DNA of 14,089 nt from positions 18,689 through 32,777 of the forward strand of contig MGQK01000067.1 of assembly GCA_001797815.1 (NCBI GenBank). Direction: 5' to 3'. Every line of letters starts with the position of its first letter. Within the stretch, counting starts at the first letter, position 1. Positions 1 through 13,785 of the stretch are shown here, one piece after another. The DNA is from Deltaproteobacteria bacterium RBG_13_61_14. GTDB lineage: Bacteria; RBG-13-61-14. Both the position numbers and the translations under genes were made by a program. Under the pieces are notes generated by a model. It saw only the letters and a list, made by a program, of their open reading frames with translations. It searched no databases and was not told the origin of the DNA.

Positions 1-2251
1 AGACCAGGAGCCCCATCCGCCGCGCTTCCGAAAGATAGGCGAAGGTCGAGTAATAACCGCCCTGGTTCGAGATCACCGCGGCCATGAACTCGGCCGGAAA
101 GTGGGCGCGGAGCCAGGCCGACTTGAAGGAGACCAGCGCGTAGCTGGCCGAGTGGGGCTTGCAAAAGGAATAGCCGCTGAAGGAGAGGATCATCTTCCAG
201 ATTTTCTCGATCACCTCTTCCGCCGCGCCCCGCGCCCGCGCCCCCCGATAAAACTGCTCCCGGTATTCCAGGAGCCGTTTGGTCCGGTGCTTCTTGGACA
301 GGATCTTGCGCAACCCATCGCCGTCAACCGCGTCGAAACCCGCCAGTGCCATGGCCGCCTTGCACACGTCCTCCTGGTAGCACATGATCCCGAACGTCTC
401 CGACAAGAGCTCCTCCAGCACCGGGGGCAGCGGCTCCCACGACCCGCCGTGCAGGCGCCGCACGTATTCACGAATGAAATCATTGGCCGCCGGCCGGATG
501 AGGGAGGAGTGCGCCACCAGCCGCTCGAAGTCGCCGGTCCCGCACTTCTGCTGGAGCTGGCGCATGGCCGGGCTCTCCACGTAAAACACGCCGAGGGTGT
601 CGCCCCGGCTGAGCAGCGCCTGGGTCGCGGGGTCATCCAGGGGGTTGAACTTGGTGTAGAGAATTTCCCTCCCGTAATTCTTCTTGATCGCGGCCAGCGC
701 GTCGCGGATCACGGCCAGGCTGCGGTTCCCGAGCAGGTCAATCTTGACCAGGCCGGCGTCCTCGGTCTGATCCTTTTCCCAGTGGATGATGTTCACGCCC
801 TTGGCCGCGCGCTCGAGCGGCACCCGGCGCACAAGCTCGCCCGGCGCGATTACCACTCCGCCGCAGTGAACCGAGAGGTGGCGGGGGATACCCTCCAGCG
901 CGGTGGCCAGCCTTAAGATCTCGGGCCAGGGCGGATCGAGCTTCAAGTCTTTGAACCTGGGGTGCATCCGCACCAACTCCTCGGCGTTGCCCGCGTCCCA
1001 AAAGCCGCGCATCCGCTTGGTCACCCGGGAGATCTCGCCCTCGGGCAGTCCATACACTTTTGCAACTTCCCGCACCGCGGCCCGGGCCTGGAAAGCCACG
1101 TGGTTCGAGACCATGGCCGCGCCCCGGGCGCCGTATTTGGCGAAGACGTAATCGAGCACGCGATCGCGCTCGTCCCAGGGGAAGTCCACGTCAATGTCGG
1201 GCGGGTCTTTGCGCCCGGGGTTGAGGAACCGCTCGAAGAAGAGGTGGTGGCGGATCGGGTCCACGTGGGTGATCTTCAGGCAGTAGCTGACAATACTCGC
1301 CGCGGCGCTGCCCCGGCCGCAGGTGAGCGGGAAACGCCGGACAATGTCTTCCACCACCAAAAAGTAGTTGGCAAAACCCTTCTGCCGGATGACGTTCAGC
1401 TCGTGGTCCAGACGTTTCCGCACCGCCTCGCCGATCCCGCCGTAGCGCTCCCTGGCCCCGGCCTCGCATTTTTCGCGGAGAAGCTTAACCGCCGCTTCCT
1501 CATCCAGGCCGGCAAAGGCCGGGAAAAGCAGGCGGTCCCAGGGCGGATCGGAGAGCAAGCACTCTTCCGCCACCCGGCCGGCGTTCTCCAGAGCCGACGG
1601 GCAATGAGGCAGCCGGCGGGCGATTTCCGCGGCTGAGGTCAGCCACGCCCCGGGGTCGGCGAGCTCGGCCGGCGGGATCCGGGAGAGCGTGGTGTTGAGG
1701 TCAATGGCGCGAAGCAGGCGGTGGAGGGCTAATTCATCCGGCTCGGCAAAGTAAACATTGCCGGTGGCGACCGGCAAGAGATCCAGCTCGCGGGCCAGCT
1801 TGAGGAGCGCGCGGTCATCGCGGCCCGGCGGCAGCGCCACGTAGAGGTCGCGCCTGACCCCCGCCTGGACAAGAGCCTTGAGTAACACCAGATCATGGCT
1901 CAGAATAATAAGGCCAGCGCGATCTTCCTGAAGATAATTCGCGAGCGAAAAATTCTCTTGCAGGTGCCGGTCGGTGAGGATCTCGCAGAGCCGGGCATAA
2001 CCGGCTTTGTCCCGGACCAGGAGCACGACCTGTTCTTGATCGGTCCGGACCTCGGCCCCCAGGATCGGCTGAATTCCGGCTTCCTTCGCCGCCTGCCAGA
2101 ACCACACCGCGCCGTAAAGCCCGTTCAGGTCGGTAAGCGCGAGCGCGGTCATGCCTGACTCCTTGGCCTTCCGGCAGAGCGCCTCGGGCGAGCTGGCGCC
2201 CCGCAGGAAGCTGTAGTAAGAATGACACTGGAGATGGACAAAACCATTCAT
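1..2251 (-). CDS. dnaE2: DNA polymerase III alpha subunit, error-prone DnaE2/ImuC-like (C-terminus beyond window)
   Basis: Reading the minus strand from ATG 2251 gives 750 uninterrupted codons up to the window edge. The N-terminus (MNGFVHLQCHSYYSFLRGAS) is a PHP domain of C-family DNA polymerases. The palm follows, with GRGSAAASIVSYCL and PPDIDVDF; the two metal-binding aspartates are about D354 and D356, and the third is D505 in KIDLLGNRS, so the polymerase site looks intact. DnaE polymerases synthesise DNA on the sliding clamp; the DnaE2/ImuC subgroup does SOS-induced translesion synthesis. Assignment to that subgroup rests on the HSYYSFLRGAS start and on the ImuB-like gene upstream; a replicative DnaE is the alternative. 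Family members are about 1000-1100 aa, so roughly a third lies outside. The ATG is chosen from the usual family start; its ribosome site is weak, and in-frame GTGs at 2260 and 2278 are possible. The spacer from imuB is filled with repeats. Confidence 0.9.
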   Translation of the reverse strand, partial: MNGFVHLQCHSYYSFLRGASSPEALCRKAKESGMTALALTDLNGLYGAVWFWQAAKEAGIQPILGAEVRTDQEQVVLLVRDKAGYARLCEILTDRHLQENFSLANYLQEDRAGLIILSHDLVLLKALVQAGVRRDLYVALPPGRDDRALLKLARELDLLPVATGNVYFAEPDELALHRLLRAIDLNTTLSRIPPAELADPGAWLTSAAEIARRLPHCPSALENAGRVAEECLLSDPPWDRLLFPAFAGLDEEAAVKLLREKCEAGARERYGGIGEAVRKRLDHELNVIRQKGFANYFLVVEDIVRRFPLTCGRGSAAASIVSYCLKITHVDPIRHHLFFERFLNPGRKDPPDIDVDFPWDERDRVLDYVFAKYGARGAAMVSNHVAFQARAAVREVAKVYGLPEGEISRVTKRMRGFWDAGNAEELVRMHPRFKDLKLDPPWPEILRLATALEGIPRHLSVHCGGVVIAPGELVRRVPLERAAKGVNIIHWEKDQTEDAGLVKIDLLGNRSLAVIRDALAAIKKNYGREILYTKFNPLDDPATQALLSRGDTLGVFYVESPAMRQLQQKCGTGDFERLVAHSSLIRPAANDFIREYVRRLHGGSWEPLPPVLEELLSETFGIMCYQEDVCKAAMALAGFDAVDGDGLRKILSKKHRTKRLLEYREQFYRGARARGAAEEVIEKIWKMILSFSGYSFCKPHSASYALVSFKSAWLRAHFPAEFMAAVISNQGGYYSTFAYLSEARRMGLLV

Positions 2252-2270
2252 GACCGACACCCAAGAATTT

Positions 2271-2355
2271 CCATCCACCGATTTCGCCGATTAACGCGGA
2301 TTTTAAAAGAGAATACCGAGCGCTTTTAATTCTTCTTCTGAATCCGTGAAATCTG
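2271..2355. repeat. Imperfect inverted repeat of the 'GATTTCGCCGATTAACGCGGATT' type
   Basis: The left arm CCGATTTCGCCGATT (from about 2278) pairs imperfectly with AATCCGTGAAATCTG (2341-2355). Inner bases AAAAGAGAAT and ATTCTTCTT extend the pairing, so the segment could fold as a long hairpin. It begins 20 bp upstream of the dnaE start. The sequence type resembles dispersed intergenic repeats of many uncultured bacterial genomes; that comparison is from memory. Confidence 0.6.
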
Positions 2356-2380
2356 CTCAGGAAATACACCGGATTCCCCC

Positions 2381-2426
2381 TCACCCTAACCCTCTCCCTC
2401 GAGGGGAGAGGGGAGGGAGAGGGTGA
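2381..2426. repeat. Polypyrimidine/polypurine hairpin repeat (TCACCCTAACCCTCTCCC type)
   Basis: The left arm TCACCCTAACCCTCTCCCTC (2381-2400) is followed directly by a G/A-rich arm beginning GAGGGGAGAG and ending GAGAGGGTGA (2401-2426). Together they make a long imperfect palindrome with almost no loop. A related C-rich/G-rich palindrome lies at 6684-6734. No T-run follows on either strand, so it does not look like a standard terminator. It is best called a dispersed intergenic repeat. Confidence 0.7.
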
Positions 2427-2529
2427 TTCCCGGCTGCAAGGGCATTTTCATGATTTCAGGGTGCCGCCTTGCGGCATGAACGACTGCATTGCAATCCGGC
2501 AACATCTTTTTATTTGGAAAGATAATTTC

Positions 2530-2716
2530 AACCGCAGATCAACGCGGATGAACGCGGATGGAAAAACAAAAAAGATATCTATCCACGAAGGAACACGAAG
2601 GGACACGAAGAAAAGAAGCCGTATTAAATTCCCTTACCTTCGCGATCATTCGTGTCTTTTCGTGGATAAATCCTTTCTTCCTCTTCATTTGCGTTTATCC
2701 GCGTCCATCTGCGGTT
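2530..2716. repeat. Nested double inverted repeat, 187 bp, two repeat families
   Basis: The outer arms are 2530-2555 and 2691-2716. They begin AACCGCAGAT and end ATCTGCGGTT, a perfect 10-bp match, and pair over 26 bp with three mismatches. Inside them lies a second pair, 2581-2600 and 2648-2667, built on CCACGAAGGAACACGAAG and TTCGTGTCTTTTCGTGG with about four mismatches. The left arms also contain short tandem units: ACGCGGATGA twice and RACACGAAGG twice. No credible ORF with a ribosome site lies here. The element sits in the imuB-dnaE spacer; 2427-2529 holds only a small hairpin (TGCCGC-CTT-GCGGCA, 2462-2476). Confidence 0.8.
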
Positions 2717-2764
2717 TCCAATTCTTCTTCGGTTGCGGCCCGGCCGCGCTGGGTAATCTGCGAA

Positions 2765-3955
2765 TCATCCTCTTCCTCTTAACTCCTTCTGCGGCATCGG
2801 TGGACATCTCCCGTAGCGCAGCGCCGCCTCGCCGAAGCGCGACCGGAGCCGATCCAGGGCCGCGACCAGGCCGCGTTCTTTGACCTCTGCCGCAGCCTCG
2901 GGAAACAGGCGGAGCTGACGCGGCTCGGGGCTCAGCTCCTTCAAGCTCAAGCCCAGGTAGCGCACCCGCGTCCGCCGGGTCCAGACGCTCTCCAAGAGCC
3001 GCTTGGCCGCGCCAAAAAGCGCGCCGTCCAAGTCCGTAGGATCGGTCAGCCTCACTTGCCGCCAAGCCGAGACGTGGTCGGCATAAGTGAGCTCCAGCCG
3101 GACCATCCCGGCCCGATGCTGGACTTGGCGCAGGCGCCGGCCGGCCCGCTCGACTAAAAGGTAGAGCACACCCAGGACCACCCGGTCGTCGTTGGAATCT
3201 TCGGCCAGGGTCTCCTCCTCCCGGATCGCGAGCGCCCGCTCGGCCGGCCGCACCGGGGAATCGTCCCGGCCGAGCGCATAGCGGTGCAAGCGATAGCCGA
3301 GAGAGCCGAAGGCCAGGAACAGGTGCTCGGGCGATATCCCGGCCAACTCGCCCACCCGGCCGATATTCAATTCCGAAAGCTTGACCTCGGCCGCTTCCCC
3401 GATCCCGGGCAGGACCTCCACCGGCAGCGGGGCCAGGAAGACGCGCTCGCCGCCGGGGAACACGTCGCACACGCCCCGGGGCCGGATCACCCGCGAGGCC
3501 ACCCGGCTCACCAGCTTGTTCGTGGCCAACCCCACGGCGCTCCGGAGCGAAAAGCGCGCCTTTAGCTCCTTCTGGATCTTCGCGCCAGTGTCCACCGCGG
3601 GGCCGAAGAGACGGCGGGTGCCGGTGAGGTCGAGAAAGAGGTGCCCGGCGCGCCAGGGCTCGATCAGGGGCGAGTATTGATCCAGATAAGTTTGCAGCGC
3701 GGCCGCGGCCTTGCGGTAGAGCGGCTCGTTGGGCGGGATCACGATCAGCCCCCGGCAGAATTTTCTGGCGACCGCCACCGGCATGCCCTTGCGCACGCCC
3801 TCAAGATAAGCCTCGCGCGAGACCGAGAGCGCCACCGCCCGGGGCGAGTTCGCCGGCGCGATCACCACCGGCCGCTCCCGCAGCGCCGAATCCTTCACCC
3901 GCTCGACCCCGATGGGGAAGGCGGAGACGTTGATATGTAACACGTCGCGGTCCAT
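2765..3955 (-). CDS. imuB: ImuB-like, catalytically dead Y-family polymerase homologue (SOS mutasome adaptor)
   Basis: This 396-aa protein aligns along its length with the DinB/ImuB Y-family: palm 1-165, helix-hairpin-helix thumb near VLPGIGEAAEVKLSEL (181-196), little finger about 240-340. The catalytic acids are gone. The N-terminal motif reads HINVSAFP, where DinB has HVDMDCFF, so N9 and S11 replace the aspartates and P14 the steric-gate Phe. The second motif reads IEPWRAGHLFLDLTG instead of IEPLSLDEAYLDVT, so G104 and H105 replace Asp-Glu. A clamp-binding peptide RQLRLF (346-351) is kept. ImuB proteins characteristically lack these acids and bridge the sliding clamp to DnaE2, which is the inferred role here. 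It is shorter than typical ImuB (about 500 aa), missing much of the usual C-terminal extension. GAGG lies 10 nt before the ATG. dnaE2 follows after a 513-bp repeat-filled spacer. Confidence 0.85.
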   Translation of the reverse strand: MDRDVLHINVSAFPIGVERVKDSALRERPVVIAPANSPRAVALSVSREAYLEGVRKGMPVAVARKFCRGLIVIPPNEPLYRKAAAALQTYLDQYSPLIEPWRAGHLFLDLTGTRRLFGPAVDTGAKIQKELKARFSLRSAVGLATNKLVSRVASRVIRPRGVCDVFPGGERVFLAPLPVEVLPGIGEAAEVKLSELNIGRVGELAGISPEHLFLAFGSLGYRLHRYALGRDDSPVRPAERALAIREEETLAEDSNDDRVVLGVLYLLVERAGRRLRQVQHRAGMVRLELTYADHVSAWRQVRLTDPTDLDGALFGAAKRLLESVWTRRTRVRYLGLSLKELSPEPRQLRLFPEAAAEVKERGLVAALDRLRSRFGEAALRYGRCPPMPQKELRGRG

Positions 3956-3967
3956 GGGAAGAAGACC

Positions 3968-4010
3968 TCACGCCAAGACGCCAAGGGGCAAAGGCGCTAA
4001 GAAGAAAAGA
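3968..4010. repeat. Dispersed repeat, 'CACGCCAAGACGCCAAGG' type, copy 1
   Basis: TCACGCCAAGACGCCAAGG followed by GCAAAGGCGCTAAGAAG is a degenerate tandem of an A(A/C)GRCGC-like unit. A same-orientation relative lies at 6592-6619. It occupies the imuB 5' flank, beginning 13 bp from the start codon. It shows no open reading frame or hairpin of its own. Confidence 0.6.
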
Positions 4011-4041
4011 ATCGAGGGTCCTATCTGGTGGCTGCGCCTGT

Positions 4042-4065
4042 AGGGGCATGGCATGCCATGCCCCT
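4042..4065. repeat. Perfect 24-bp palindrome between the unknown gene and imuB
   Basis: Half-site AGGGGCATGGCA is followed at once by its exact reverse complement, giving a loop-free 24-bp palindrome; a T/G wobble and a G-C pair extend it by two bases on each side. It lies in the 158-bp gap before imuB. No T-run follows on the minus strand, so intrinsic termination is not supported. It could be a dispersed palindromic repeat, an mRNA-processing hairpin or a protein-binding site. Confidence 0.75.
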
Positions 4066-4113
4066 GCCTTCTTACTTGAATCCTTTGGATAACTTAAACT
4101 TAAAGAAAGCTGG

Positions 4114-4884
4114 CTACCTCTTCTTGGGCCAAAAAACTCCTAGCACAATCCAACTTGTGGGGTGTTGGAAAAGAGTCCCAACAAAAAAATGTGTGTCTTT
4201 ACCTGAATCACACATCTCATCGTAATATTTTTGCCGAACTTTTTGAGCGGCGATATTAGGATCGCTGAACTTATCCCTCATCTGGCGATAAAGCTGTCCG
4301 AGTTCCCAATCTTCGATCATCATGGTGTGCCCCTGACATTCGGGGTTGTCGCAAGTAAAAACATAGGAGAACTTAAATGGAATTTTCTCCAAAGGCTTCT
4401 GGTCCGGCCCGAACAATCTTTGCTGTTGAAATACAGTTTTCCATTGAGGTTTCCAATCTGGCTCCACAGGTTCGATGCGGAAATCTTGCACATACTTTGG
4501 TCGAACGATGCCAAGAGAAGTCTTGTCAGCCTCTTGTTTCTTCCAAAGTTCTTCCATGGTATGAGTACCCTTGGCCAGAACATATTTTCTGCGCTCCGCC
4601 CAATTCCGCTTGGTATCAAGCCGGGCAAGGGGTTGGATTGTGTCTACCTTGGGTCGGAAACTTTCCTTGCGTGGATCATTCGGATGCTTCACAACCTCCA
4701 ATTCGATCCACTGATATTTTTTGTACCACTGACAGTAGGGCTGGTAGCGATAGTCAATGGGGTAAAGTCGGATCCAATCTCCGTTTTCCAAAACCCCTGC
4801 CGTGCATACCAGTTCTTGGTAAGACTTGGAAGGTAGAGGATAAGTCTTAACCGTGATTAAAACCTTACGTTTCTCATAATTCAT
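4114..4884 (-). CDS. Unrecognised 256-aa protein with a CX4CX2H putative metal site
   Basis: I do not recognise this family. The start is the ATG at 4884 (MNYEKRKVLITVKTYPLPSK). It overlaps the upstream stop codon as ATGA and has GGAGG eight bases further up, whereas the longer reading lies inside the upstream gene. The N-terminal third is beta-rich (RKVLITVKTYP, ELVCTAGVLENGDWIRLYPI, YQWIELEVVKHP). The middle is charged and Trp-rich. Residues 171-195 hold CDNPECQGH (C178, C183, H186), possibly binding zinc, followed by IEDWELGQLYRQM. The C-terminus reads DTHFFVGT and HPTSWIVLGVFWPKK. No signal peptide or membrane segment is seen. Base composition is well below its neighbours' (24 of 60 G+C at 4201-4260). 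Its coupling to the DUF488 gene argues for a joint function; I cannot name the reaction. Confidence 0.85.
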   Translation of the reverse strand: MNYEKRKVLITVKTYPLPSKSYQELVCTAGVLENGDWIRLYPIDYRYQPYCQWYKKYQWIELEVVKHPNDPRKESFRPKVDTIQPLARLDTKRNWAERRKYVLAKGTHTMEELWKKQEADKTSLGIVRPKYVQDFRIEPVEPDWKPQWKTVFQQQRLFGPDQKPLEKIPFKFSYVFTCDNPECQGHTMMIEDWELGQLYRQMRDKFSDPNIAAQKVRQKYYDEMCDSGKDTHFFVGTLFQHPTSWIVLGVFWPKKR

Positions 4885-5759
4885 CTTGCCTCCAGATGAT
4901 GAACAGGCAGCCCTGAATTCCGGGCCAATGCTTGGGCTAGACGACTCCGATGGCAACTATTCGCGTCCGCTTCCACGCATAACAAAGCCGTAGGCTGAGT
5001 CCGAATCAACCTTAAAGCTTGGCCCATAGCCTCTTGATGGCGAGGCAAAATCGCTTTTTCATAGCGATTCAGTAAGGCCCGACGGGATGCCGGTGTGCTC
5101 AAGTTTTCTCTTTGTTCCTGGGGGACACCCAACTCAGGGAGATGCCGATATTCGATGCCCACCTTGGAGCAAAATTCTGCCAGGGCATTTTGGGTGAAGC
5201 CCCACTTCCGCGACCAGGGGTTGTTCCGGACATCCAAAATTTGTTTGATTCCGTGCTGGATGCAGGCGTTGAGAAAGCCATCCACTGACGTTCCCTCGTA
5301 GCCAATGGTGTAGATGGAAATTGGAGCCACGGGAGGAGAAGAAGATTGCGCCTTGAGCTCGCTAAAGTAAGTAAACCTGGGGTAGCGGTCATAAATTATC
5401 TTAATCAAGTGGTGATCCGAAACGCGGGAAAACCGCCGCTCGATCTTGGCTACCCCTTCGCGAAGCGAGACCGGCATCTTTTCCACTTCCTCTGCCGCTT
5501 CAGTTTTCCGAGTTTTGAGAATTTCTAAATCCTCATCCCCTCGAATCCATCCATCTCGCGCCAACTCGTTGAGATCGCGATAAAGCGCAAAAGAGAACGG
5601 CCCATATTTATATGGCAAAAAGTCATAAAACGGCCCTCGCTCTCCCTCAGGCAACTCTTGGGCAACCAAAAATGCCATCTTCACCAGCCGAGTTTTAGAA
5701 GGCGACCCCTGATGTCCCAGCAGGAAAGAAAGAATGACTCTTTGCGCGTTTCTCATCAT
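4881..5759 (-). CDS. Panacea-like domain fused to DUF488
   Basis: The 292-aa protein has two parts. Residues 1-135 resemble the Panacea/SocA-like (DUF4065) or YwgA-like helical domain: KMAFLVAQE, then PFYDFLPYKYGPFSFALYRD and LNELARDGWI. Residues 147-292 are a full DUF488 domain: TIGYEG (151-156), ILDVRNNPWSRKWGF (174-188), RHLPELGVP, LLCVEADANSCHRSRLA (259-275) and VHHLE. The conserved Cys/His motif CX8CHR is intact (C261, C269, H270). DUF488 has no established reaction; Panacea domains are known as antitoxin or chaperone-like domains. The start is the ATG at 5759, preceded by GGAGG and GAGGAAAAT; a second ATG follows immediately. It starts 43 bp after lexA on the same strand and overlaps the next gene by 4 bp. 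G+C is lower than lexA's (33 of 60 at 5041-5100 against 43 of 60 at 6121-6180), suggesting acquisition by transfer. Confidence 0.85.
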   Translation of the reverse strand: MMRNAQRVILSFLLGHQGSPSKTRLVKMAFLVAQELPEGERGPFYDFLPYKYGPFSFALYRDLNELARDGWIRGDEDLEILKTRKTEAAEEVEKMPVSLREGVAKIERRFSRVSDHHLIKIIYDRYPRFTYFSELKAQSSSPPVAPISIYTIGYEGTSVDGFLNACIQHGIKQILDVRNNPWSRKWGFTQNALAEFCSKVGIEYRHLPELGVPQEQRENLSTPASRRALLNRYEKAILPRHQEAMGQALRLIRTQPTALLCVEADANSCHRSRLAQALARNSGLPVHHLEAR

Positions 5760-5802
5760 ATTTTCCTCAACCTCCTGCGGCGATTATAGCCGAAGGAAGG
5801 AA

Positions 5803-6402
5803 TTACCGATACGTCCTCATCAACCCGATCACCACACCCTGGATCTTCACCTGGTCCGCGGCCACGGTGATCGGTTCCATGGCCGGGTTGGCCGGCCGCA
5901 GTTCCACCAACTTCCCTTGCCGAAAAAACTTCTTGACCGTGGCCTCACCCTCGATCAGCGCCACCACGGTCTGGCCGTTCTCCGCGCTCTCCTGCTTCTT
6001 GACCAGGATCAGATCCCCATCGTGGATGCCGTCCTCAATCATCGAGTCGCCCTTCACCTTGAGCGCAAAACACTCCCCGCCCCGGAGCAAACTCTCCGGC
6101 ACCTCCACCTGGTCCGGCACCTCCACCGCCTCAATCGGCTCTCCCGCCGCCACCGCGCCCAAAAGCGGCAACCTCACCCCCGGCCGGCCCCGGCCCACCA
6201 GAGCGAGCGCCCGCTTCTGGCTGGCCCAAGGCGAGCGCAGATACCCCTTCCGCTCCAACTGCTTCAGGTGCTTGAAGACCGTGCTCAAGGAGCTCAGGCC
6301 CAGCCCCTGCCGGATTTCCTCGTAAGACGGCGCGGTGCCCTGCTCCTCAAAATACTCCTCCAAGAAGCTGTAAACCTCTTGCTGGCGACGGGTCAGGTTC
6401 AT
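5803..6402 (-). CDS. lexA: LexA repressor, SOS regulator and self-cleaving serine peptidase
   Basis: The protein is 199 aa, the usual LexA length. It begins MNLTRRQQEVYSFLEEYF. The N-terminal winged helix-turn-helix spans about 25-58 (SYEEIRQGLGLSSLSTVFKHL). The autocleavage bond is Ala86-Gly87 in GAVAAGEP. The catalytic dyad is Ser120 in KGDSM and Lys157 in EATVKKF. LexA represses SOS genes by binding DNA as a dimer; RecA filaments on single-stranded DNA trigger its self-cleavage. The ATG at 6402 is chosen because homology starts there and GGAG lies 7 nt upstream; a longer reading to 6489 would run through leader repeats. Promoter, possible operator and a structured leader lie just upstream. 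It heads the co-oriented block leading to imuB and dnaE2, and probably controls it. Confidence 0.97.
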   Translation of the reverse strand: MNLTRRQQEVYSFLEEYFEEQGTAPSYEEIRQGLGLSSLSTVFKHLKQLERKGYLRSPWASQKRALALVGRGRPGVRLPLLGAVAAGEPIEAVEVPDQVEVPESLLRGGECFALKVKGDSMIEDGIHDGDLILVKKQESAENGQTVVALIEGEATVKKFFRQGKLVELRPANPAMEPITVAADQVKIQGVVIGLMRTYR

Positions 6403-6404
6403 GA

Positions 6405-6490
6405 TTTCGCTCCGCGAAAGTTCCCAGTTGGCGGTTGGTGGTTGACGGAAAGATCTCTTCTCCGAAAACCGCGAACCGCCAACCGTCAAC
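6405..6490 (-). promoter_or_regulatory. Structured lexA 5' leader with alternative stems
   Basis: In the minus-strand transcript a 15-base hairpin TTTCGC-GGA-GCGAAA (6419 to 6405) ends two bases before the lexA ATG and holds the GGAG ribosome site in its loop and first stem base. Upstream, the segment 6490-6473 can pair with 6444-6427 (GTTGACGGTTGGCGGTT against AACCACCAACCGCCAAC, about 15 of 17). Alternatively GTTGACGG (6490-6483) pairs perfectly with CCGTCAAC (6448-6441). The two registers exclude each other. This may be a decayed repeat or a real translational control element. Confidence 0.5.
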
Positions 6491-6494
6491 TATC

Positions 6495-6513
6495 CCTATA
6501 GGAGAATATTAGG
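6495..6513 (-). promoter_or_regulatory. Candidate LexA operator at the lexA start site
   Basis: The minus strand reads CCTAATATTCTCCTATAGG, which contains a perfect 8-bp palindrome CCTATAGG (6495-6502) and outer CCTA/TAGG arms. It overlaps the -10 box and the expected transcription start, where autoregulating LexA sites usually lie. It matches no LexA box I know. The 158 bp upstream of imuB do not repeat it convincingly, so this is positional inference only. Confidence 0.3.
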
Positions 6514-6534
6514 CGAAGATTTTCCTTTTGTCAA
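6506..6534 (-). promoter_or_regulatory. lexA promoter, TTGACA-17-TAATAT
   Basis: On the minus strand a consensus -35 box TTGACA (6534-6529) is followed by a 17-bp spacer and TAATAT (6511-6506). Transcription would start near 6499, giving a leader of about 97 nt before lexA. No equally good promoter was found before the DUF488, unknown or imuB genes, so read-through from here into them is plausible. Confidence 0.75.
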
Positions 6535-6920: not shown

Positions 6921-9266
6921 ATGAAATCCCTCGAAGCGAAATCCCCTCCCCCGGCTTCCTTTTCCCAGCCCCGATTCCTTTTCGCCGTCTTTGCCATCTG
7001 CTTCTGCATGCTCTTCCTGGAACTGCTCTACCCCAAGTTCTTTTATTTCCTGAAGATTTACCCCGGCTTCGAGATGGTGCTGGTGGCGGTGAACATGCTC
7101 GGCCTGGCCGCCGGCGGCATCTACGGCTACCTTTGGCCCCGCTCCGCCCTGGCCACCCGGCTCTTCGCGCTCGGTTTTGCCCTCTCCATCGGCCTGTCCC
7201 TGGTCACCACCCTCTACTGGCAAGACCCCCGCTGGATCATCGCCGTCCTGGTGCTGCCCTTTTTCTTCGGCAGCGTGGTCATTGCCGAGGCCTTTATCGC
7301 GGCCCCGCCCTCGCGGGTCTATGCCGCCAGCCTGCTCGGCTCCGGGCTGGGGATCCTGGCCATTTTCTTTTTGCTGGAGCCCCTCGGCGGCGAAGGCTGT
7401 ATCCTGCTGGTGACCGCGCTCGCGGCCGTGGCCGCGGTTTCGCTTCCGGGCCGGCCCCTGATCCGGACACTGGCCGGACTCTGGATCATAATCTTTGCGG
7501 CGCTCTTCACGGTGCAGGTGCTGACCGACCGCTTTGACCTGATCAAGATCCTGCCCCGCACCTACCAATACCCCGGCATTACCGCGCAGGTCGGCTCGGA
7601 CGCGCTCAAACTGACCGATGCCAGGCTCCTCGCCACCCGCTGGAGCCTGATCACCCGGGTGGACGCGATCCAGGGCGACTACAGCACGATGATGTCCTGC
7701 TTTCCCCAGGGCTTGCCCGCCACCGAATCTCCCGACTTGCGCGAGCTGCGCGAGACCTACCTCACCCCCATCAACCTCTACTATAACAACGAGGCCTTTA
7801 CTCCGGCCGCGGCCCGAGGCGAGGTCTTCTCCGCCCTGCCCTACCTCTTCCTGGACCGGCCTTCGGTGCTGGTGATCGGTCCGGGCGGCGGCGCCGATTT
7901 GGCCAAAGCCTTCTTTCATCAGGCCAGGGAAGTGGTGGCGGTGGAGATCAACCCCGGCACGGTGGAGATGATGCGCGGGCCGCTGGCCCAGGCCACCGGC
8001 CAGGTCTATAACCGGGCTGAAGTCCACACCCTCGACGGCCGCACCTATGTGCACTGGGCCGACCGCAAGTTCGACCTGATCACCCTCATGTTCGCCGAGC
8101 TCTACATCGCCTTTCCCAACTCCCAGGTTTTCATCGAGAACTACCTTTACACGGTGGAAGCCTTCGAGGACTATTTCCGCCATTTAAACGACCAGGGTTT
8201 CATCTTCATCGTCAAGCCCCTGGCCGAGAAAAAGGGCGAACCCAGCCAACTGCTCCGCCTGACCACCACGGCCTTTGAGGCGCTGCGCCGGCTGGGCGTC
8301 GAGCGGCCCCAGGACCACATCGTGGTCTCCGGGATGCGCTGCGCCCTGCCCTTTTTCGAGGGCGGGAAACTCCTGATCAAGCGCACGCCGTTCACCGCGG
8401 AAGAGGTCTCGCGGATCGCGGCCCTGCAAACCGATCCCTTTTACATGGTCGCCGGGCCGGGACTCGCGGTCTCGCCGGCGGACGATCCTTTCCGCCAATT
8501 CCTGGAATCGCCGGACAAGAAAAAGTTCTATGACTCTTATCCGCTGGACGTCACTCCCTGCACCGACAACCGGCCCTTCTTTTATATTTTCGACCGCGAC
8601 CTCCCGGTCCACCGCCAGTTCTACTCCACCTTTCTCAAGCTGGCGGCGATCTTGAACCTGATCCCGCTGGCGCTCATCTTCCTGCTTAGCAAGAAATTCC
8701 TCCGGCCGGCTTACTATCCTCCGCTCCTCTTCTTCATCGCGCTCGGCGCCGCCTATATGTTCCTGCAGGCAACCATGATCCAGAAGTTCAACCTGTATCT
8801 CGGCAGCCCCACCTATTCTCTGGCCGTGGTCATTGGCTCGTTCATGGTCTTTGCCGGACTGGGCAGCGGGCTGGCCGGCCGGCTCTCCCCCCGAGGAGCG
8901 ATCGTCGGCGTGATCCTGATTCCCTTGCTCCTTCTCGGCACCTTTCTCCTGCTGCCCCGCTACCTGGAACTGACTTTCAGCCCTCATCTCGGCAGCCGCA
9001 TCGCCGCCGCCCTCCTTTTCCTGGCGCCCCTCTCCTTCTGCCTGGGCCTGCCCTTCCCCCGCGCCCTGGCCGGGGTCAAGGCCCGCTTCAGCGAGCGGGA
9101 CGCCGCCTTTTTCTACAGCGTGGACGCGGCGGTGGCCGTGATCGCGGTGGTATCCTCCATCCTGCTCTCCATCCTCCTCGGCTTCAACGCCCTCTTCCTG
9201 ATCACCATCGCCGGCTATGCCCTGGCCGCACTGCTTTTCATCTTCACGCCGGCACTCAACCACTAA
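6921..9266 (+). CDS. Membrane-embedded spermidine synthase-like protein (SAM-fold domain between two membrane regions)
   Basis: The 781-aa protein has about seven hydrophobic segments in 18-202, a soluble Rossmann domain at about 300-480, and about seven more segments in 572-777. The soluble part carries the nucleoside-binding loop VLVIGPGGGADLAKA (316-330) and the acidic strand end VVAVEINP (338-345), as in spermidine synthase (SpeE) and class I methyltransferases. TDNRPFFYIF (548-557) and the TYSLAVVIGSFMVFAGLGSG segment are typical of bacterial membrane SpeE-like proteins. Where SpeE has the catalytic Asp (ITDSSDP), this protein reads ITLMFAEL, so aminopropyl transfer is doubtful. The substrate is unknown. 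ATG 6921 is chosen because the next Met (residue 30) lies inside the first membrane segment. It has its own promoter and a promoter-separated neighbour downstream. Confidence 0.88.
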   Translation: MKSLEAKSPPPASFSQPRFLFAVFAICFCMLFLELLYPKFFYFLKIYPGFEMVLVAVNMLGLAAGGIYGYLWPRSALATRLFALGFALSIGLSLVTTLYWQDPRWIIAVLVLPFFFGSVVIAEAFIAAPPSRVYAASLLGSGLGILAIFFLLEPLGGEGCILLVTALAAVAAVSLPGRPLIRTLAGLWIIIFAALFTVQVLTDRFDLIKILPRTYQYPGITAQVGSDALKLTDARLLATRWSLITRVDAIQGDYSTMMSCFPQGLPATESPDLRELRETYLTPINLYYNNEAFTPAAARGEVFSALPYLFLDRPSVLVIGPGGGADLAKAFFHQAREVVAVEINPGTVEMMRGPLAQATGQVYNRAEVHTLDGRTYVHWADRKFDLITLMFAELYIAFPNSQVFIENYLYTVEAFEDYFRHLNDQGFIFIVKPLAEKKGEPSQLLRLTTTAFEALRRLGVERPQDHIVVSGMRCALPFFEGGKLLIKRTPFTAEEVSRIAALQTDPFYMVAGPGLAVSPADDPFRQFLESPDKKKFYDSYPLDVTPCTDNRPFFYIFDRDLPVHRQFYSTFLKLAAILNLIPLALIFLLSKKFLRPAYYPPLLFFIALGAAYMFLQATMIQKFNLYLGSPTYSLAVVIGSFMVFAGLGSGLAGRLSPRGAIVGVILIPLLLLGTFLLLPRYLELTFSPHLGSRIAAALLFLAPLSFCLGLPFPRALAGVKARFSERDAAFFYSVDAAVAVIAVVSSILLSILLGFNALFLITIAGYALAALLFIFTPALNH

Positions 9267-13099: not shown

Positions 13100-13495
13100 A
13101 TGACCAAGCAAGATCATATCCAGTACTGGATGGAGCTGGCGGAGCATGATTGGGAGACCTGCGAGTCCCTCTTTGCAACCGGCCGTTATGATTCTTGCCT
13201 GTTTTACGCCCATTTGCTTTTGGAAAAGCTGTTGAAAGCGTTATGGGTCAAGAGCCATGCCGAGAACGTCCCGCCCAAAATTCACCCTCTGCATCTCTTG
13301 GCCTTGGATATCAATCTTGAACTTCCTCAAGAGACCTTGACCTACCTCAAGCAAGTCAATCGTTTCGCGATTGAGAGTCGGTACCCTGACTATAAAATGT
13401 CTTTTTATCGGGAATGCACGCGCGAATTCACCGAAGCAAACCTGAAGCGCATTCAGGAGACCGCGACATGGCTGAAAGAGAAGCTCAAGAGTTGA
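13100..13495 (+). CDS. HEPN-domain protein, toxin-like partner of an MNT pair
   Basis: The 131-aa, mostly helical protein matches the HEPN fold: YWMELAEHDWETCESLFATG, YDSCLFYAHLLLEKLLKAL (30-48), PPKIHPLHLLALD and IESRYPDY (91-98). HEPN proteins paired with a minimal nucleotidyltransferase often act as toxin-antitoxin modules, where HEPN is an RNase. The typical RX4-6H catalytic motif is not visible; the only Arg-then-His spacing is R29 to H38. RNase activity is therefore doubtful, and a substrate- or partner-binding role is possible. GGGAG lies close before ATG 13100. Its 3' end overlaps the MNT gene by 28 bp. Local G+C is low (27 of 60 at 13201-13260), suggesting transfer. Confidence 0.85.
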   Translation: MTKQDHIQYWMELAEHDWETCESLFATGRYDSCLFYAHLLLEKLLKALWVKSHAENVPPKIHPLHLLALDINLELPQETLTYLKQVNRFAIESRYPDYKMSFYRECTREFTEANLKRIQETATWLKEKLKS

Positions 13496-13785
13496 CCGCA
13501 ATCCGGGAATTTCTGAACATGCTCCGTCATCAAGACATCCGCGTGGATCAAGCCTATTGGTTCGGTTCCCGGGCGCAGGGACAAGGAACCCGTTACAGCG
13601 ACTTGGACGTGGCGGTTATCTCTCCGGACCTGAGCGGGAATCGGTTCCGGGACAGCCTCCGGATCATCGAGGCGACGCCGGAGGCGGAAGCCCACATCGA
13701 AGTCCATCCTTTCCGCCCCGAAGATTTCACCGAGGATGATCCCTTTGCCGCGGAGATTATGCGCACCGGCATCCGGATCGAATAA
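13468..13785 (+). CDS. Minimal nucleotidyltransferase (MNT), antitoxin-like partner of HEPN
   Basis: The 105-aa protein has the polymerase-beta-type motif GSX10[22 protein letters not shown], with G33-S34 and D45/D47. The usual third acidic position may be E78 in HIEVHPF. Some MNT antitoxins modify their HEPN partner with AMP groups; whether that happens here is inference. ATG 13468 is chosen because AGGAG lies eight bases upstream; the longer in-frame reading from 13414 would overlap HEPN by 82 bp. The gene overlaps HEPN by 28 bp and ends one base before icd. Confidence 0.88.

What the first reader, a model, noticed from the sequence alone, without database searches (positions are those of the whole stretch)
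2252..6402. SOS mutasome block without imuA, with an AT-rich gene pair in its place
The classical cassette is lexA-imuA-imuB-dnaE2. Here lexA, a Panacea/DUF488 fusion, an unknown protein, imuB and dnaE2 are co-oriented and no RecA-like ImuA is encoded. The two inserted genes have clearly lower G+C. Either a mobile pair was inserted, or the pair does ImuA's job or another SOS-induced job. This is the best candidate for an undescribed system in the window.
Basis: partly seen in the sequence, partly recalled or inferred. Interest (0 to 1): 0.7.

Follow-up and report, generated by a model that had tools for sequence, protein, structure and literature searches.

The report
Mobile gene pair in SOS operon
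A two-gene module already catalogued as a candidate anti-phage defence pair has landed between the SOS repressor gene and its partner mutagenesis genes; the missing imuA gene is normal for this type of operon and was not replaced by the pair.

Summary
The layout is real: lexA – gene pair – catalytically dead Y-family polymerase – dnaE2, all on the minus strand. The pair is AT-rich (GC at third codon positions 0.49–0.55, against 0.83–0.88 for most neighbours). No imuA was found in the genome.

The reading "the pair took imuA's place" fails. A relative in the same order has lexA–polY–dnaE2 packed together, with no pair and no imuA found. Several other lineages show the same core. This ImuA-less type was described in 2019: its polymerase carries a RecA-like motif and probably binds RecA directly. 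The window's polymerase has that motif and lacks the DUF6504/ImuB-C domain of classical ImuB.

The pair matches both halves of PADLOC's candidate defence system PDC-M19 (E 1e-72 and 2e-87). It occurs as a tight pair in many phyla, on plasmids and in temperate phages. lexA was not found beside it in any of 80 named genome loci.

New here: M19A's N-terminal domain is predicted to resemble the toxin-sequestering domain of the antitoxin DarG, and M19B looks like a double-OB, ssDNA-binding-type protein. A DarTG-like DNA-directed pair is my best mechanism; it is untested. Coupling to SOS is possible but seen only here.

The parts
5803..6402 (-). lexA, SOS repressor
   Evidence: TIGR00498 E 4.7e-60, above cut-off
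6506..6534 (-). lexA promoter-like site, TTGACA-17-TAATAT
   Evidence: Consensus scan, 10 of 12 matches; the only strong site driving this strand across the block
4881..5759 (-). M19A: Panacea/DarG-C-terminal-like domain (about residues 2-137) fused to DUF488 (about 147-292)
   Evidence: PADLOC PDC-M19A E 9.6e-73; DUF488 E 3.6e-24; model pLDDT 95.5, residues 2-137 match chain B of the DarT-DarG complex 7yk3 at Z 12.7
4114..4884 (-). M19B: predicted double-OB protein; its start overlaps the M19A stop (ATGA)
   Evidence: PADLOC PDC-M19B E 1.9e-87; model pLDDT 96.3, nearest folds LEF-3, RPA70 and HIN at Z 5-7.5; 2 of 53 homologues hit PF22557 DuOB weakly
4040..4067 (.). Palindromic REP-like element between M19B and polY
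   Evidence: 12-pair hairpin; 62 forward and 55 reverse pattern matches in the genome (most sites match on both strands), 0 in the backward control
2765..3955 (-). ImuB-like, catalytically dead Y-family polymerase with beta-clamp motif QLRLF and a RecA N-terminal-like motif
   Evidence: PF00817 E 1.2e-32; INVSAF and GHLFLD replace IDxDxF and DExxLD
1..2278 (-). dnaE2, error-prone Pol III alpha (runs off the window)
   Evidence: PF07733, PF17657 and PHP; complete frame in L185

Best explanation
Two separate things sit here. (1) lexA-polY-dnaE2 is an ImuA-less SOS mutasome operon of a known type: the dead Y-family polymerase probably docks on RecA through its RecA-like motif and on the beta clamp through QLRLF, and brings in DnaE2. 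(2) Between lexA and polY lies a horizontally acquired copy of the candidate anti-phage pair PDC-M19. Proposed mechanism (inferred, not shown): M19B is a double-OB protein that binds single-stranded DNA or DNA ends; the Panacea/DarG-like domain of M19A holds M19B in check by binding its DNA-binding face; and the DUF488 domain (PTP/RapZ-like fold, invariant C-x-E and CHR motifs) edits phosphate or nucleotide groups on DNA ends. That would make it a DNA-directed defence or toxin-antitoxin-like pair built on DarTG logic.
For: Pair identity. Tight pairing: 70 of 72 same-strand pairs overlap or lie under 30 nt apart. Independence from SOS genes: lexA not detected beside the pair in any of 80 named genome loci; among 44 viral-contig loci one has a weak short LexA match 3.4 kb away; one Y-polymerase homologue with an active-type N-terminus lies 1.6 kb downstream at L087. 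Mobility: 23 plasmids, 7 Gordonia phage records with the pair beside an integrase. Foreign composition. Empty site: G001, same order, has lexA-polY-dnaE2 with adjoining genes. No ImuA found. Other ImuA-less lexA-polY-dnaE2 loci. Published operon type: PMC6511836. Structure. DarG logic: PMC7003065 and PMC12170906.
Against: PDC-M19 is only a computed defence candidate; I found no experimental test of it. About 24 of the collected loci lack a detectable Panacea-like domain, about half of them with DUF488 convergent to M19B, so that domain is not obligatory and cannot be the whole control. The double-OB match is modest (Z at most 7.5, a level the tool warns can be a common arrangement). No complex between M19A and M19B was modelled. 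The same-order relative is from another family and its polymerase is only 36% identical, so the insertion is inferred over a long distance.
Confidence: 0.8

Rival explanations
1. The pair replaces ImuA: one or both proteins bridge the dead polymerase and DnaE2 as ImuA does in classical cassettes.
For: It occupies the slot between lexA and imuB, where imuA normally sits, on the same strand.
Against: ImuA-less operons exist without it: G001, G046, G055, G329, G245 and others have no pair at this place, and no ImuA was found in G001, G046 and G055, which were checked across the whole assembly. The window's polymerase lacks DUF6504/ImuB-C, and the C-terminal region of ImuB is what binds ImuA in M. 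tuberculosis. The pair's models show no RecA-like fold among their best matches, and lexA was not found beside it elsewhere.
Confidence: 0.04
2. The inserted pair has been put under SOS control: read-through from the lexA promoter makes this defence candidate inducible by DNA damage, such as damage from phage infection.
For: lexA stop to M19A start is 43 bp, same strand, with a good ribosome site; no scored promoter or minus-strand terminator lies in between. M19A and M19B overlap by ATGA, which suggests translational coupling.
Against: A lone TATAAT in the 43-bp gap could be the pair's own -10. The LexA-box model from relatives gave no significant site in the window. Only one genome shows the arrangement.
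Confidence: 0.25
3. PDC-M19 is not defence but a DNA-repair or DNA-end-processing pair carried by mobile elements for their own maintenance.
For: OB folds of ssDNA-binding and repair proteins; carriage by plasmids and temperate phages; neighbours are very mixed with no strong defence-only signal.
Against: Catalogued as a defence candidate by PADLOC; the Panacea/DarG-like domain points to toxin or effector control.
Confidence: 0.3

Closest known systems
PADLOC PDC-M19 (PDC-M19A + PDC-M19B), phage defence candidate
   Same: Both proteins match over nearly full length and are encoded side by side.
   Different: Located inside an SOS mutasome operon; no other such location was seen.
ImuA-less mutasomes of Timinskas and Venclovas 2019 (Kyrpidia tusciae-like and S. 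coelicolor DinB2-like)
   Same: Dead Y-family polymerase with RecA N-terminal-like motif, next to dnaE2 and lexA, no imuA.
   Different: No stand-alone ImuB-C found in this genome, and a foreign pair splits the operon.
DarTG toxin-antitoxin system
   Same: M19A's N-terminal domain resembles chain B of the DarT-DarG complex 7yk3 (Z 12.7); both antitoxin-side proteins fuse such a domain to an enzyme-like domain, and the partner is tied to ssDNA.
   Different: No DarT ADP-ribosyltransferase and no macrodomain; the partner is an OB-type protein and the enzyme-like domain is DUF488.
DUF488-N3 / DuOB families (Pfam PF22751, PF22557)
   Same: 36 of 42 M19A homologues hit DUF488-N3a and 2 of 53 M19B homologues hit DuOB.
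   Different: The window's own M19A is below the DUF488-N3a cut-off and M19B has no DuOB hit.

Membership tests
PDC-M19 | M19A and M19B encoded next to each other | tested here: met
   E 9.6e-73 and 1.9e-87 over nearly full profile length; ATGA overlap
PDC-M19 | Anti-phage activity | not testable with these tools
   The system is a candidate; no experimental test found
Classical imuA-imuB-dnaE2 cassette | ImuA encoded | tested here: not met
   ImuA model finds only RecA; Agrobacterium ImuA finds nothing convincing. Genome is 95% complete
Classical imuA-imuB-dnaE2 cassette | ImuB with C-terminal ImuB-C (DUF6504) | tested here: not met
   No match in P0003 or the genome; Caulobacter control positive
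ImuA-less mutasome (Timinskas and Venclovas) | Y-family member (here dead) with RecA N-terminal-like motif | tested here: met
   Catalytic acids replaced; motif LVAALDRLRSRFGEAALRYG present (motif judged by eye)
ImuA-less mutasome (Timinskas and Venclovas) | dnaE2 and often lexA in the same operon | tested here: met
   Same strand and order; co-transcription not tested
DarTG | DarT ADP-ribosyltransferase partner | tested here: inconclusive
   Partner M19B has no Pfam hit and its model's best matches are OB folds, not ADP-ribosyltransferases; a fold not listed is not excluded, so I do not file the pair as DarTG
DarTG | DarG-like sequestering domain | tested here: met
   Fold match to 7yk3_B, Z 12.7, 2.5 A over 130 residues; sequestering activity not tested

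The most novel reading that the evidence does not exclude
PDC-M19 is a DNA-directed immune pair working on DarTG logic (a DarG-like domain on M19A masks the DNA-binding face of a double-OB effector, and DUF488 edits DNA ends), and in this lineage its insertion behind lexA has wired it to the SOS response, so that DNA damage from infection switches it on.
Probability: 0.1. Interest if true: 0.6.

Novelty: new member of a known kind. Interest (0 to 1): 0.33.

Why it matters
It removes a false lead: the operon did not lose imuA to an unknown replacement, because this operon type lacks imuA anyway. It also gives the untested candidate system PDC-M19 a concrete, testable hypothesis: a DarG-like control domain on one protein and an ssDNA-type OB partner on the other.

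Tried and rejected
ImuA replacement: rejected (rival 1). LexA boxes: six relatives' lexA promoters share 11-bp-period direct repeats such as ACTTACGN4ACTTACG, but a model of them gave no significant site in the window, and a CTAT-N4/5-ATAG palindrome upstream of lexA was supported by one relative only. Solved-structure sequence searches found no relatives for M19B and only two chance-level hits for M19A. Neighbour scan: methyltransferases and mad genes occur near the pair, but neighbours are very mixed and no null was run, so I claim no defence-island enrichment. Literature searches for PDC-M19, DUF488 with DUF4065, and DuOB found nothing relevant. A paper I recall on the RapZ-C-DUF488-DUF4326 clade (Burroughs and Aravind) was not found in the library, so its prediction of DNA-end processing is from memory. 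Whole-genome download was not available. The viral fold library gave again LEF-3 proteins as best matches for M19B and nothing closer.

Full report
Observation. On the minus strand the window encodes lexA (5803-6402), M19A (4881-5759), M19B (4114-4884), a Y-family polymerase (2765-3955) and dnaE2 (to 2278, running off the window). The pair is compositionally foreign: GC3 is 0.546 and 0.494 against 0.83-0.88 for lexA, polY, dnaE2 and the other large genes of the window. M19A and M19B overlap by ATGA. The gap from lexA to M19A is 43 bp and holds a good ribosome site and a lone TATAAT. The only strong promoter-like site driving this strand in the block is upstream of lexA.

The mutasome. The 'imuB' protein has lost the Y-family catalytic acids (INVSAF, GHLFLD) but keeps a beta-clamp motif (QLRLF) and a RecA N-terminal-like motif (LVAALDRLRSRFGEAALRYG). 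It lacks the DUF6504/ImuB-C domain of classical ImuB, and none was found elsewhere in the genome, while the Caulobacter control is positive. No ImuA was found in the 95%-complete genome. The ImuA model hits only a protein with an intact RecA P-loop. That model is a weak test, since it rings on the control genomes without passing its cut-off; an Agrobacterium ImuA as query also finds nothing convincing. Timinskas and Venclovas 2019 (PMC6511836) describe exactly such variants: a Y-family polymerase, active or dead, with the RecA-like motif, next to dnaE2 and often lexA, with no imuA in operon or genome, RecA presumably standing in.

Relatives. G001, of the same order but another family, carries lexA-polY-dnaE2 as a compact operon with a dead polymerase, no pair, and no ImuA found. 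The same core without the pair is seen in G046, G055, G329, G245, G372, G103, G149 and G059; some of these polymerases are active, and in G046 another gene lies between polY and dnaE2. A Desulfosarcina ovata plasmid has lexA-DUF72-polY-dnaE2. So imuA is ordinarily absent and the pair is an addition in this lineage, not a substitute.

The pair. Both proteins match PADLOC's phage defence candidate PDC-M19 over nearly their full length (E 9.6e-73 and 1.9e-87). Homologues occur in 17 of 386 sampled genomes (own genome included), in at least 566 stretches of a species-level genome collection, on 23 plasmids, in 44 viral-contig loci and in Gordonia temperate phages, where the neighbouring gene is annotated as an immunity repressor and an integrase lies nearby. 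Nearest M19B relatives (60-66% identity) come from several phyla. Pairing is tight: 70 of 72 same-strand pairs overlap or lie under 30 nt apart. lexA was not detected in the flanks of any of the 80 named genome loci. About 24 of 128 examined loci lack a detectable Panacea-like domain; in 13 loci a DUF488 gene is convergent to M19B.

Structure. M19A was modelled at pLDDT 95.5. Residues 2-137 match chain B of the M. tuberculosis DarT-DarG complex 7yk3 at Z 12.7 over 130 residues; residues 147-292 match PTP-like and diphthine-synthase-like folds. That chain B is DarG's C-terminal domain is my reading of its length and of the cited paper title. 12 of 42 homologues hit SocA_Panacea and 36 hit DUF488-N3a. 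M19B was modelled at pLDDT 96.3; its nearest folds are tandem OB proteins that bind DNA (LEF-3, RPA70, HIN, telomere-end proteins), at Z 5-7.5, and two homologues weakly hit DuOB. DarG's C-terminal domain sequesters DarT (PMC7003065), reportedly by ssDNA mimicry (title cited in PMC12170906).

Mechanism. Shown: gene order, identity, composition, pairing, distribution, conserved motifs. Predicted: folds. Inferred: M19B binds ssDNA or DNA ends, M19A's N-terminal domain masks it, DUF488 edits DNA ends. I give about 0.25 to this specific mechanism and about 0.9 to 'mobile PDC-M19 pair inserted into an ImuA-less mutasome operon'; the overall 0.8 mainly reflects the latter. SOS coupling is plausible from the layout but rests on one genome, and no LexA-box evidence supports a separate site.

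Verdict. The layout is real, the ImuA-replacement reading fails, and the system is catalogued though untested. Interest is moderate to low; the DarG-like/OB reading of PDC-M19 is the part worth testing.

Noticed in passing
window 13100-13785 +: A HEPN-domain gene (PF05168) followed by a nucleotidyltransferase gene (PF01909) with overlapping frames, a typical HEPN-MNT toxin-antitoxin pair, also with lowered GC3 (0.63-0.65).
   Followed up: no
window 6403-6500 -: A strong hairpin (RNA fold -46.3 kcal/mol, z -5.0) lies between the lexA promoter and the lexA start; its arm sequence recurs about 10 times in the genome, so it is a dispersed palindromic repeat in the lexA leader.
   Followed up: partly
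window 4040-4067: GGGGCATGGCATGCCATGCCCC palindrome belongs to a dispersed family with about 60 sites in this genome.
   Followed up: partly
window 2279-2764: The 480-bp gap between polY and dnaE2 is filled with inverted-repeat sequence instead of an evident gene.
   Followed up: no
L186 3378-9153 (Desulfosarcina ovata plasmid NZ_AP021877.1): A mobilizable plasmid carries lexA-DUF72-Y-family polymerase-dnaE2: an ImuA-less mutasome on a plasmid, with DUF72 in the slot between lexA and polY.
   Followed up: partly
L189, L190, L192, L019, L008, L014 upstream of lexA: lexA promoters of these ImuA-less lineages share direct repeats with an 11-bp period (such as ACTTACGN4ACTTACG), a likely direct-repeat LexA operator.
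   Followed up: partly
window 6921-9266 +: A 781-aa protein with a spermine-synthase-like methyltransferase domain and hydrophobic ends is encoded divergently from lexA.
   Followed up: no
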